Source: Rhodanobacter sp. PCA2 (GTDB lineage Bacteria; Pseudomonadota; Gammaproteobacteria; Xanthomonadales; Rhodanobacteraceae). From it: a DNA stretch of 64,000 nt. The DNA lies in assembly GCF_013620825.1 (NCBI RefSeq), contig NZ_NJIC01000009.1, positions 62,743-126,742 on the forward strand. The letters run 5' to 3'. The notes beneath the pieces were generated by a model. That model was not told the origin of the DNA. It was given only the letters and a program-made list of their open reading frames with translations, and made no database searches. This document shows positions 3,560 to 28,584 of the stretch, piece by piece (within the stretch, counting starts at the first letter, position 1; every line of letters starts with the position of its first letter). Both the position numbers and the translations under genes were made by a program.

Positions 3560-5212
3560 TCAGCCTTGCGGGCTGGGCGGTGGTTTCTTTCTCACCGGGG
3601 TTTTCCGGGGCGTGAGGGTGTTCTTCGCCGGGGTGGCGGGAGTCGCGGGTGCGGGCGTGGGAGCTGCGGACGTCGCCGGTGCCAGCCCTGGCGCGTTGGC
3701 GACCCGTGACCGCAGCAGCTGGCAGAGGGAGTCGAAGCGGCAGCAGCATTCCTGGTAGCCGCCGTTGTCGCCGGTGAGGCCCAGCGCGGCGTAGTGGTGC
3801 AGGCCGCGCGGCGGAAGCGTGGCGGCGGTGCCGCCTGGTGCGGGCCAGTCGAGCTGGCCGTTGCCGGCCACGCGGGCGGGGACCAGCCAGTAGTCGCCGG
3901 TGGCGTACAGGCCGCCCGGCGCGAACGTGACCTGCACGCCGTCCTCCAGCGCGATCGCCGCGCCCTCGCTCACCGGCAGCACGCCTTGCGCGTTCGCTCC
4001 GTCGCGCTGGTCCCAGCGGCGCAGCAGCGGATGGCTGGCGGGATTGGTGTCCAGCGTCCACGGCGTGACGCCTTGCGGCACGGCCAGCGTGACGCTGCCG
4101 TCGGCCGCGCTGGCCGCCAGCACCTGCAGCAGCGGCCAGGCGCGCTGGCCCAGCGTGTAGCCGTCGTCGACCAGTTCCACCCAGTCGTTCGCCGCCAGCC
4201 CCAGCCGCGCGTCGCGGCCGAAGCGCTGCAGCGGCACGGTGAGCGTGCGGCTGCCGTCGTCGGCCGCCGCGCCCAGCACGGCGGGGCCCGCGACGGGGAA
4301 CACCACCGAGCCGTTCTCGCGCGACCACTTGAAAGTGGCGGTGCCGGCGAGGCCGGGCTGGTGGATCTCGACCCGGTACAACTGGTTCTCCATGCCGCGG
4401 TAGCGCGCATCGGCGGCGATCACGCAGGGATCGTTGTCCGCCACCGTGGGCCCCAGCTCCGCGCGCAGACCGGGCAGCGCGTAGGCGCGCCGGGTGTCCA
4501 GCAGCTGGCGGAGCAGGGTGCACGGGTCGGTGTTGCCGGCCTGGTTGCCGCCTTTCAGCGCCTGCCCGAGCTGGTTCACCGCAGCGAGCTGCTGGTCGAT
4601 CGCGGCGGTGTCGGTGGTGCTGGTGGCGGCCTGCCGGCGCGTGTTCAGCGCGGTGGCGACGTCGGCCAGCCGCTGCTGCGCATGCGGCTGGTCCAGCATG
4701 CGCAGCTGCCACACGACTTGTCCGCGCGAGCAGGTGTCGATGCCGTCCAGCGCGCTGTCCAGGCTGGACGGCGCCTCGATCCACGACAGGTGGCGCTCCC
4801 ACACGTCCAGCCACAGCGCGAAGCTGGCCGGCGGATTCTCGAAGCCGCTCTTGCCGTCGCCCACGCCGTAGTCGGGGGTGGGTGCGTTCGGCTGCTGCGC
4901 AAGCGTGCAGGCGGCCTCGTTGGCGCACAGGATGCCGTCCACGTAGAAGTGCCCGGGCGCGAGCTGCCAGTCGGTGAGCGGCAGCGGCTTGCTGTTGCCG
5001 TTCGGGTCGGTGGTGGCGCTGGCGAGGGCGAAGCCGCCGCCGGCCGCCCAGCACGGGCCGACCAGGTCGCGCACCAGGGTGTGCAGCAGGTGCAGCTGGA
5101 TCTGCGTCTGTTCGTTCCAGTCCGCTTCCAGCAGCACGCGGCCCTGCTGCTGGAACACCTGGCTGTAGTGCTGCTTCGGGTCGAAGGTGACACGTGCGAA
5201 GTCGCCTTTCAT
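3560..5212 (-). CDS. DUF6519 family protein of the contractile injection system
   Basis: A 550-residue protein with the N-terminal signature MKGDFARVTFDP, HYSQVFQQQGRVLLEADWNE, which marks the DUF6519 family found at the ends of contractile-injection and tailocin-like clusters. A spike, fibre-base or chaperone-like role has been guessed for such proteins, but none is established. The middle contains YRVEIHQPG followed by FKWSRENGSV, typical of this family. From about residue 505 the tail is rich in Ala, Pro and Lys and probably disordered. It is the last gene of the operon, 19 bp after the beta-helix tail gene. Confidence 0.85.
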   Translation of the reverse strand: MKGDFARVTFDPKQHYSQVFQQQGRVLLEADWNEQTQIQLHLLHTLVRDLVGPCWAAGGGFALASATTDPNGNSKPLPLTDWQLAPGHFYVDGILCANEAACTLAQQPNAPTPDYGVGDGKSGFENPPASFALWLDVWERHLSWIEAPSSLDSALDGIDTCSRGQVVWQLRMLDQPHAQQRLADVATALNTRRQAATSTTDTAAIDQQLAAVNQLGQALKGGNQAGNTDPCTLLRQLLDTRRAYALPGLRAELGPTVADNDPCVIAADARYRGMENQLYRVEIHQPGLAGTATFKWSRENGSVVFPVAGPAVLGAAADDGSRTLTVPLQRFGRDARLGLAANDWVELVDDGYTLGQRAWPLLQVLAASAADGSVTLAVPQGVTPWTLDTNPASHPLLRRWDQRDGANAQGVLPVSEGAAIALEDGVQVTFAPGGLYATGDYWLVPARVAGNGQLDWPAPGGTAATLPPRGLHHYAALGLTGDNGGYQECCCRFDSLCQLLRSRVANAPGLAPATSAAPTPAPATPATPAKNTLTPRKTPVRKKPPPSPQG

Positions 5213-5231
5213 GGTCGATCTCCTGACTCGC

Positions 5232-27580: not shown

Positions 27581-27594
27581 GGCGTCGCGGCCGC

Positions 27595-28584
27595 TCAGCG
27601 CGGCCGGAACTGCTTGGTCTCGATGCCGTGCTTCAGCAGCAGCTTGCCGAGCTGGCGGCGCTCGGTGCCGGACAGGCGCGCGGCGGCGCTGATGTTGCCG
27701 CTGGCCTGCTCCATCAGGCGGGTGAGGTAGTCGCGCTCGAAGGTGCGGATCGCGTGCAGCTTGGCCGCGCTGAAGCGCAGGTCAGGCTCGTTCGCGCGCC
27801 GGCGCGGCGCGGATTCGGTGCCGGCGAACGCGGGCTCCGCCGCCTGCAGCTCGGCCACGCCGATCCGCGGGCCGTCGCCGCCCACGTAGGCGCGCAGCAC
27901 GATGTTCTCCAGCTCGCGCACGTTGCCCGGCCACGCGTACGCGCGCAGCGCGGACAGCGCATCGTCGCCCCACTGCCGGGCCGGGCCGCCCACGCGCGCG
28001 GCCGCGGCTTCGAGGAAATGCCGGGCCAGCAGCAGCACGTCGTCGTCGCGCTCGCGCAGCGGCGGCAGGCGCACGTACAGCGCATTGAGCCGGTAGTGCA
28101 GGTCGCGACGGAAGCGGCCGGCCGCCACCTGCCGCTCCAGGCCTGCATTGGTGGCGGCGATGATGCGCGCGTCGGAAATCCGCGGCGCGCCGCCGCCCAC
28201 CGGCCGGTACTGGTTGTCCTGCAGGAAGCGCAGCAGCGTCACCTGGCCCTTGTCCGAGAGCGAATCGACCTCGTCGAGGAACAGCGTGCCGCCCTGCGCG
28301 TGGTCGACCAGTCCGGGCTGGGCGGCCTTGGCATCGGTGAACGCGCCGCGGTCGTGGCCGAACAACTCGTTCTCGATCAGGCTGTCGGGGATCGCGCCGC
28401 AGTTGACCGGCACGAATGGGCGGTCGCGGCGCGCGCTGGTGTAGTGGATTTCCCTGGCCGCCAGCTCCTTGCCGGTGCCGGTCTCGCCCTCGATCAGCAC
28501 CTGCACGTCGCAGCCCGCATAGCGCCGCAACAGCGCCCGTGCGGACTGGATCGCCCTCGATTGGCCGAGCATGATCGACATCAT
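27595..28584 (-). CDS. Sigma-54-dependent activator without sensory domain (PspF-like architecture)
   Basis: A 329-residue bacterial enhancer-binding protein made only of the AAA+ domain and a Fis-type HTH. Walker A is GETGTGKE (33-40), Walker B GGTLFLDEVD (98-107), and the arginine-finger segment RFRRDLHYRLNALYVRLPPL is present. The sigma-54 contact loop reads GAFTDA (80-85) instead of GAFTGA. The C-terminal helix-turn-helix is in NISAAARLSGTERRQLGKLL. Without a receiver or GAF domain it should be controlled by a partner or by its level, as in PspF or HrpR/S. Its position suggests control of the eCIS operon. Start may be either of two adjacent ATGs. Confidence 0.9.
   Translation of the reverse strand: MMSIMLGQSRAIQSARALLRRYAGCDVQVLIEGETGTGKELAAREIHYTSARRDRPFVPVNCGAIPDSLIENELFGHDRGAFTDAKAAQPGLVDHAQGGTLFLDEVDSLSDKGQVTLLRFLQDNQYRPVGGGAPRISDARIIAATNAGLERQVAAGRFRRDLHYRLNALYVRLPPLRERDDDVLLLARHFLEAAAARVGGPARQWGDDALSALRAYAWPGNVRELENIVLRAYVGGDGPRIGVAELQAAEPAFAGTESAPRRRANEPDLRFSAAKLHAIRTFERDYLTRLMEQASGNISAAARLSGTERRQLGKLLLKHGIETKQFRPR

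What the first reader, a model, noticed from the sequence alone, without database searches (positions are those of the whole stretch)
3560..28584. Complete eCIS operon with its own sigma-54 activator and promoter
Twenty-one close or overlapping genes encode a full contractile injection device, including sheath, tube, hub, spike, wedges, ATPase and a candidate cargo. A sigma-54 activator gene, its terminator and a near-consensus -24/-12 promoter precede the first gene. Known eCIS clusters are rarely described as RpoN-controlled, and the gene set does not match a simple Afp or PVC copy. There are no capsid, terminase or integrase genes, so it is not a prophage.
Basis: partly seen in the sequence, partly recalled or inferred. 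Interest (0 to 1): 0.88.

Follow-up and report, generated by a model that had tools for sequence, protein, structure and literature searches.

The report
Sigma-54-switched bacterial injection-device operon
A Rhodanobacter-like bacterium carries a complete set of genes for a phage-tail-like injection device together with its own dedicated sigma-54 on-switch, and relatives of that same switch sit in front of such devices in bacteria of four phyla.

Summary
An intact 21-gene extracellular contractile injection system (eCIS) operon on the minus strand (27413 to 3560) follows an activator gene (28584 to 27595) and an exact TGGCACG-N4-TTGC promoter. The claimed terminator is not supported. The machine is an ordinary, widespread eCIS type; its control circuit is the news. 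(1) A 16-bp enhancer dyad, GGGTC-N6-GACCC, lies 78 bp upstream of the -24 element (77-80 bp in 7 of 8 close relatives). (2) The first gene encodes a new winged-helix family (g1). (3) The cassette recurs: 23 of the 80 nearest eCIS loci carry a relative of this activator plus g1, in four phyla, and these activators form one clade. A strict -24/-12 site is found in 16 of these 23 but in 2 of 54 others. The enhancer sequence differs between lineages together with one residue of the activator's HTH (confounded by ancestry). In some relatives extra copies of the unit precede accessory genes, one a calpain-type protease. I found no report of sigma-54 control of eCIS in the searches made. Verdict: a known machine with a new regulatory variant. 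Expression itself is untested.

The parts
27595..28584 (-). act: sensor-less sigma-54 activator (bEBP), 329 aa, GAFTDA loop, Fis-type HTH with RRQLG segment
27524..27539 (-). UAS: 16-bp enhancer dyad GGGTC-N6-GACCC, 78 bp upstream of the -24 element
   Evidence: conserved in relatives
27447..27461 (-). -24/-12 promoter TGGCACGCATGTTGC
27141..27413 (-). g1: 90-aa winged-helix protein, first gene of the operon, no Pfam/NCBIfam/PHROG hit above cut-off
25495..27105 (-). sheath
24951..25478 (-). tube (gp19)
24208..24945 (-). T4 gp26-like baseplate protein (start uncertain)
23465..24211 (-). Pro/Ala-rich protein, role unknown
22224..23468 (-). Pvc16/DUF4255 tail terminator
20074..22227 (-). AAA+ ATPase
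19772..20071 (-). g8: small protein of unknown function (start uncertain)
18103..19779 (-). candidate cargo: eCIS_core + OmpA-like stretch + Aspzincin M35 metallopeptidase
17277..18029 (-). protein with hydrophobic N-terminal stretch (membrane, by reading) and weak TPR match
16624..17280 (-). CIS_tube protein
15946..16554 (-). M15 peptidoglycan peptidase, endolysin-like
15587..15907 (-). LysM-like baseplate protein (weak)
14458..15594 (-). hub, weak VgrG-related similarity
13943..14461 (-). spike (gpV/VgrG OB domain)
13609..13932 (-). PAAR-like tip (DUF4280, below cut-off)
13215..13601 (-). gp25 wedge
10393..13218 (-). baseplate protein J1 (TIGR02243)
7460..10396 (-). baseplate protein J2 (TIGR02243, Baseplate_J)
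5232..7463 (-). gpI-like protein, named by position only
3560..5212 (-). DUF6519 protein, last gene

Best explanation
The locus is an eCIS operon switched on as one unit by a dedicated sigma-54 circuit. The activator act binds a 16-bp dyad about 78 bp upstream of the -24 element and remodels sigma-54 polymerase at the -24/-12 site, giving one transcript that starts about 22 nt before g1 and runs through all 21 genes (inferred). Act has no sensor domain and carries GAFTDA, a loop form that is constitutive when engineered in NorR, so control probably acts on how much act is made, or through a partner protein (inferred). g1, a winged-helix protein made first, is the likeliest feedback partner (inferred). 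The device is loaded with an eCIS_core-tagged metallopeptidase and released with the help of the operon's lysin (inferred). Shown here by sequence: the parts, their geometry, their joint occurrence and the enhancer/HTH correlation.
For: (a) 23 of 80 nearest eCIS loci have an act-clade gene upstream of the sheath; all 23 also have g1; 1 more (L067) has g1 alone. (b) act of the window and of those 23 loci is one branch, support 100/99, against 6 other bEBPs of the same genome and the unrelated bEBP of L060; 2 more own-genome bEBPs were not extracted, and the program warned of long branches and an unsettled bootstrap. (c) Strict -24/-12 in the -500..-150 zone: 16 of 23 act loci versus 2 of 54 others, Fisher p=2e-9; with one mismatch allowed 18 of 23 versus 4 of 54; 3 of 80 left out for short upstream. 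(d) GGGT-N8-ACCC between act and promoter in 12 of 20 act loci tested (3 of 23 not tested) versus 0.095 expected by mononucleotide shuffling; the motif was chosen after seeing these loci and 8 of the 12 are Rhodanobacteraceae. 6 of 6 Nitrospira tested have GCGGC-N6-GCCGC 75-77 bp before the -24 T. (e) Composite enhancer + promoter pattern over 233 family genomes: 34 matches in 27 genomes, reversed control 11; once in the window's own genome, at this locus. 30 of 34 examined: 22 lie beside act, g1 or sheath; all 22 have the full GGGTC..GACCC dyad, of the other 8 only one does. (f) In 45 genomes of genus g19, 15 of 18 with a strong act match have a sheath within 3.5 kb on the same strand.
Against: No expression data. 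7 of 23 act loci fail the strict promoter test: L028 and L085 have one mismatch; L026 has a site displaced upstream by an inserted gene; L057 and L058 end in GT instead of GC; the Verrucomicrobia L082 and L088 have only weak sites. Outside Rhodanobacteraceae and Nitrospira the dyad-to-promoter distance varies: about 81 bp (L051), 67 (L057), 68 (L058), 153 (L085) (positions). L059 (strict site) and L034 (one-mismatch site) have the GGGT dyad but no act in the fetched flank. L067 has g1 without act. In genus g19, 3 of 18 genomes with strong act have no sheath match (G199, G232, G219), and 3 of 18 genomes with a sheath match have only a weak act match (G205, G213, G217). One of the 22 eCIS-linked composite sites (L145) reads away from the eCIS, toward an aldo/keto-reductase-like gene.
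Confidence: 0.83

Rival explanations
1. The device is made from another, sigma-54-independent promoter, and the sigma-54 unit mainly drives g1 or is a relic.
For: Some act-linked units precede other genes (accessory genes, an Hsp70 gene) or loci without eCIS. The cassette is seen with divergent sheaths, so unit and machine are partly separable.
Against: Only 35 bp separate g1 from the sheath gene. The scan found no sigma-70-like site in 26900-29200 or 2500-22400 (22401-26899 not scanned), though such scans prove little. Enhancer and promoter are kept while most of the non-coding DNA between them is not.
Confidence: 0.1
2. The particle is not extracellular but acts inside or at the membrane of the producing cell, as in Streptomyces, with the membrane protein and lysin mediating own-cell death.
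For: The operon holds a protein with a hydrophobic N-terminal stretch (17277-18029) and a peptidoglycan hydrolase; in relatives the operon holds either an M15 or a CHAP enzyme. A Streptomyces CIS that is cytoplasmic, and its membrane protein CisA, are described in abstract starts seen in the listing (PMC10066040, PMC12237407; not read further).
Against: No homology of the membrane protein to CisA was tested. The same hydrolase is equally expected for release by lysis of a particle that acts outside.
Confidence: 0.3
3. The locus is a prophage remnant or R-type tailocin whose sigma-54 control is incidental.
For: The structural genes are phage-tail-like.
Against: It has a Pvc16-type terminator, an AAA ATPase, an eCIS_core cargo and DUF6519, and no capsid, terminase or integrase among the operon genes.
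Confidence: 0.03

Closest known systems
eCIS of the Afp/PVC class (Geller 2021, PMC8213781, passages seen)
   Same: Sheath, tube, spike, gp25, baseplate J, Pvc16/DUF4255, AAA ATPase and a DUF4157/eCIS_core cargo; the sheath matches PDB chains 8bky ('phage tail sheath protein', 5e-74), Pvc2 (8e-43) and Afp3 (4e-41).
   Different: One sheath gene; no fibre family hit and no long tape-measure gene recognised; sigma-54 circuit in place of the GerE, BTAD or RfaH regulators named there.
T6SS under a sigma-54 activator (VasH type; recalled; several T6SS papers holding 'sigma-54' are in the listing)
   Same: A contractile machine whose own cluster encodes a sigma-54 activator.
   Different: No T6SS membrane-complex family hit among the operon genes; VasH was not compared here.
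Sensor-less bEBPs such as PspF and HrpR/S (recalled)
   Same: AAA+ domain plus Fis-type HTH only. The PspF profile matches (TIGR02974, 231 bits) but below its cut-off of 443.55.
   Different: Separate clade from 6 own-genome bEBPs, with an RRx[FL] HTH segment; no PspA family hit among the operon genes, a winged-helix gene instead. No known PspF or HrpR sequence was put in the tree.
NorR G266D (PMC2941729, passages seen)
   Same: GAFTDA loop as in the window's act.
   Different: There it is a mutant that escapes GAF repression; here it is natural and no GAF domain is present, so the loop's meaning is inferred.

Membership tests
eCIS | Contractile sheath, tube, spike, gp25, baseplate J | tested here: met
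eCIS | AAA ATPase and Pvc16/DUF4255 | tested here: met
eCIS | DUF4157/eCIS_core cargo | tested here: met
   PF13699 1.3e-29
eCIS | Afp13-like tail fibre | tested here: inconclusive
   No fibre family hit among the 21 genes in Pfam; NCBIfam and PHROGs were run on part of them. Geller 2021 lists toxin loci with 'No afp13 in operon'
eCIS | Particles released outside the cell | not testable with these tools
   -
Sigma-54-dependent operon | -24/-12 site with GG and GC at the right spacing | tested here: met
Sigma-54-dependent operon | Cognate bEBP with Walker A, sigma-54 loop and HTH | tested here: met
   GETGTGKE, GAFTDA, HTH_8
Sigma-54-dependent operon | Enhancer dyad upstream | tested here: met
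   (by sequence; binding untested)
Sigma-54-dependent operon | RpoN in the genome | tested here: met
Sigma-54-dependent operon | Loss of expression without RpoN | not testable with these tools
T6SS | TssJLM membrane complex | tested here: not met
   No such Pfam family among the 21 operon genes
Prophage | Capsid, terminase, integrase | tested here: not met
   None by Pfam among the 21 operon genes; rest of the window not scanned

The most novel reading that the evidence does not exclude
A self-contained sigma-54 cassette (sensor-less activator, 16-bp enhancer, -24/-12 site, new winged-helix protein g1) is an old, portable expression switch for contractile injection systems, carried across at least four phyla, re-tuned by enhancer/HTH co-evolution, and copied in front of effector genes. 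g1 is a new kind of anti-activator that turns expression into a pulse or an all-or-none event, so the enhancer motif can be used to find unlinked effectors.
Probability: 0.35. Interest if true: 0.78.

Novelty: new variant of a known kind. Interest (0 to 1): 0.62.

Why it matters
How eCIS production is switched on is mostly unknown; Geller 2021 speaks of 'yet unknown signals' (passage). Sigma-54 operons are silent without their activator (established knowledge), so a dedicated, sensor-less activator names one gene whose removal should silence the device, moves the question of the signal to that gene's own expression, and supplies an enhancer-promoter motif for finding co-regulated genes. It would also make eCIS, beside T6SS, a second contractile machine with its own sigma-54 activator.

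Tried and rejected
L060 as a member of the circuit: its bEBP scores 273.3 bits against 461.7 or more for the other 23, lacks the RRx[FL] segment and falls outside the clade; rejected, although its sheath has a strict -24/-12 site. First composite scan: my pattern had one base too many in the promoter spacer, missed the window's own site and gave 4 matches in 233 genomes; repeated correctly. The profile search includes rows used to build the profiles, so only absences, L060, and rows left out of A1 (such as L024) are informative there. In one search I set the sheath start by hand for 3 of 80 loci (L081, L093, L101), where the automatic start was wrong. The act tree lacks two own-genome bEBPs (L148, L151) that my script did not extract. 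Hub and gpI identities stay weak. The Verrucomicrobia dyad (GGAC-N6-GTCC twice in L082, a near copy once in L088) rests on two loci and is only a lead. Chen 2019 is not held, so eCIS subtype was not tested. PMC10599522 holds 'sigma-54' and 'contractile injection', but in unrelated places (passages).
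Full report
What is there. The window lies in a 3.9-Mb genome of 62 contigs whose closest named kin at this locus are Rhodanobacter (sheath 89% identical). On the minus strand an activator gene (28584-27595) is followed by a regulatory stretch and 21 genes from 27413 to 3560. Family searches identify a full eCIS set: sheath, tube, gp26-like, Pvc16/DUF4255, AAA ATPase, eCIS_core cargo ending in an M35-type metallopeptidase, CIS_tube, M15 lysin, LysM-like, weak hub, VgrG-like spike, PAAR-like tip, gp25, two TIGR02243 baseplate proteins, a gpI-like protein named by position, and DUF6519. 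The same order (CIS_tube, LysM, hub, spike, PAAR, gp25, J1) recurs in Nocardia L084, Nocardioides L087 and Myxococcus L100, which have no act in the fetched stretch, so the machine itself is a widespread type.

Promoter. TGGCACGCATGTTGC at 27447-27461 is exact. The window has no hit with 1 mismatch and 27 with 2; all 28 together are fewer than the 43 expected by shuffling, so the looser hits mean nothing. The genome has 10 TGGCAYG-N4-TTGC sites against 1 for the reversed control and one RpoN. The predicted start is about 22 nt before g1, whose ATG follows a GGAGG sequence (reading).

Enhancer. Aligning the act-g1 interval of the window with 8 Rhodanobacter-group loci shows a conserved dyad CGGGTC-N6-GACCC in mostly unconserved non-coding DNA; a second, partly conserved block lies just upstream of it, role unknown. 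The distance to the -24 T is 78 bp in the window and 77-80 bp in 7 of 8 loci. In the eighth (L026) a gene is inserted between promoter and g1, and a degenerate dyad lies 78 bp before a TGGCATG-type site at 8184. In the 6 Nitrospira loci tested (of 9) the dyad is GCGGC-N6-GCCGC, also 16 bp, 75-77 bp before the -24 T, with a second copy 72 bp further up in 3 of 6. GGGT-N8-ACCC also appears in Nitrosomonas L051, Methylococcales L057, Marinobacter L058 and Pyrinomonadaceae L085, at about 81, 67, 68 and 153 bp.

Spread of the cassette. The search for related loci kept the best 80 of 244 sheath relatives. tblastn of the window proteins and profile searches put an act-clade gene and g1 upstream of the sheath in 23 of 80: 8 Rhodanobacteraceae, 9 Nitrospira, Nitrosomonas, Methylococcales, Marinobacter, 2 Verrucomicrobia and 1 Pyrinomonadaceae, that is Pseudomonadota, Nitrospirota, Verrucomicrobiota and Acidobacteriota (taxonomy as printed). 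g1 occurs once more, without act, in Exilibacterium L067. A maximum-likelihood tree places the window's act and these 23 on one branch with support 100/99 against 6 other bEBPs of the same genome and L060. The outgroup is small, branches are long and the bootstrap had not settled. All 24 share an RRx[FL] segment in the HTH; the 5 own-genome bEBPs shown and L060 do not. The residue after it is G in the loci with GGGT dyads, Q in Nitrospira and W in the two Verrucomicrobia, a correlation confounded by ancestry.

Test of association. In the 77 loci with enough upstream sequence, a strict -24/-12 site in the -500..-150 zone is present in 16 of 23 act loci and 2 of 54 others (p=2e-9); with one mismatch, 18 of 23 and 4 of 54. 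The two strict others are L060, with an unrelated bEBP nearby, and L059, which carries the GGGT dyad. GGGT-N8-ACCC within 800 bp of the sheath: 11 of 23 act loci, 2 of 54 others (L059 and L034). L034 has it 79 bp before a one-mismatch site. The nine Nitrospira and eight Rhodanobacteraceae loci are related, so the p-value overstates independence.

Test by prediction. The composite pattern GGGTC-N6-GACC...GGCA-N6-TTGC, made from the window and its kin, was run over 233 genomes of the family: 34 matches in 27 genomes; the reversed control gave 11 matches (my sum over the table). Of 30 matches fetched as loci, 22 lie within 1.5 kb of act, g1 or sheath. All 22 have the full GGGTC..GACCC dyad, as does only one of the other 8, L129. 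In the window's genome the composite occurs once, at this locus. 15 of these have a sheath within 3.5 kb, two of them (G228, G230) a much diverged sheath. The other three keep act, dyad, promoter and a g1. In the stretches fetched from G199 and G232 no window eCIS gene other than act and g1 was found; the unit there precedes accessory genes, and g1 lies about 5.4 kb downstream. In G219 an Hsp70 gene follows g1. The flanking fpr and dus genes of the window are recognisable in L206 and L208 (by reading). Conversely 3 of 18 genomes with a sheath match (G205, G213, G217) have only a weak act match. The six weak act matches (3.5e-127 to 4.3e-101) were not pursued.

Extra targets. In L022 two complete enhancer-promoter units surround an inserted gene, and L025 has a second -24/-12 site. 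Genes behind extra or displaced units include a calpain-family protease (L025, PF00648 4e-20; a closely similar protein by eye in L128) and large proteins with no Pfam match (L022, L026, two in L207). These are candidate effectors or accessory factors (inference).

g1. AlphaFold2 on 25 sequences gives helix-strand-helix-helix-strand-strand, mean pLDDT 75.7, pTM 0.62. Many of the 50 Foldseek matches listed (of 1303) are winged-helix regulators (Fur, PadR, BlaI, MarR), E from about 5e-3, none at 0.001 or below. Profile hits in the PDB are weak and include ArsR, MarR, Fur and Z-DNA-binding proteins. It has no Pfam, NCBIfam or PHROG hit above cut-off. Being first in the operon and found with act, it is the best candidate for feedback on act; the sign is unknown.

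Activator mechanism. Act has no sensor domain. The second G of GAFTGA is D in 12 of 24 (window, 8 Rhodanobacteraceae, L051, L057, L058), S in the 9 Nitrospira and G in 3. In NorR, D at this place gives full and S partial signal-independent activity (passages of PMC2941729), and GAFTDA and GAYTDA occur naturally in Desulfovibrio bEBPs (passages of PMC4641369). I infer that act is active when made, so the input signal acts on act's own transcription or through a partner.

Cargo and release. In 6 of 6 relatives fetched further downstream, tblastn matches the window's cargo only in about its first 208 residues; L213's also has eCIS_core. So the N-terminus is shared and the C-terminus differs there. 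A peptidoglycan hydrolase is present in 6 of the 7 operons looked at: M15 in the window and L212; a PG-binding/CHAP-type protein in L211, L213, L214 and L216 (Pfam run on L213 only, the rest by eye). My ORF filter listed none for L215. This fits release by lysis, but also own-cell death.

Literature. Searches for contractile injection with sigma-54 or RpoN (3 and 6 papers), a mixed search (15 of 841 listed), phage tail-like with sigma-54 (8), Rhodanobacter (2) and Nitrospira (15) gave listings in which no title or abstract start describes sigma-54 control of an eCIS; the listing includes several T6SS papers. Term searches within Geller 2021, the 2023 review PMC10598620 and the 2026 review PMC12961389 found 'sigma' 0 times. 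In the sigma-54 regulon survey PMC12316311 'contractile', 'tail' and 'injection' occur 0 times. These are main texts only; supplements and subscription papers, Chen 2019 among them, were not searched.

Noticed in passing
L022:6934-9641: Two complete enhancer plus -24/-12 units around an inserted gene (open segment of 818 codons, no Pfam match), so the circuit has been copied in front of an extra gene.
   Followed up: partly
L025:6006-7499 and L128: Calpain-family (Peptidase_C2) protein behind its own sigma-54 site next to eCIS; candidate effector.
   Followed up: partly
L208 (G219:C26): Act, dyad, promoter and g1 followed by an Hsp70-family gene instead of eCIS, then a dus-like gene.
   Followed up: partly
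L206, L207 (G199, G232): Act, sigma-54 unit, accessory genes and a g1 remain, but no other window eCIS gene is found in the fetched stretch.
   Followed up: partly
L129/L210 (G200:C2): Full dyad and -24/-12 unit upstream of a lipoprotein-like gene with a CxxCH motif, on another contig than that genome's eCIS; possible unlinked target or chance.
   Followed up: no
L145 (G122:C3): A second unit beside act reads away from the eCIS, toward an aldo/keto-reductase-like gene.
   Followed up: no
L034, L059: GGGT dyad and -24/-12 site before the sheath but no act within the fetched flank; the activator may lie elsewhere.
   Followed up: no
L067:9532-9798: g1 relative before the sheath without act nearby.
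   Followed up: no
27595-28584: PHROG family 7998 (unknown function, 339 positions) matches act at 1.6e-53, so activators of this general kind are also encoded by phages.
   Followed up: no
1611-3271: hipBA-like pair (HipA_C 7.9e-47 and an HTH protein) between the last eCIS gene and a dus-like gene.
   Followed up: partly
28704-32091: Divergent genes read from sequence as ferredoxin reductase, Fnr/Crp-type regulator and NnrS-like membrane protein next to act; not searched in family libraries.
   Followed up: no
G205:C2 and G217:C55: Weaker act matches (1.7e-121, 3.9e-121) about 22-27 kb from longer sheath genes on the same contig.
   Followed up: no
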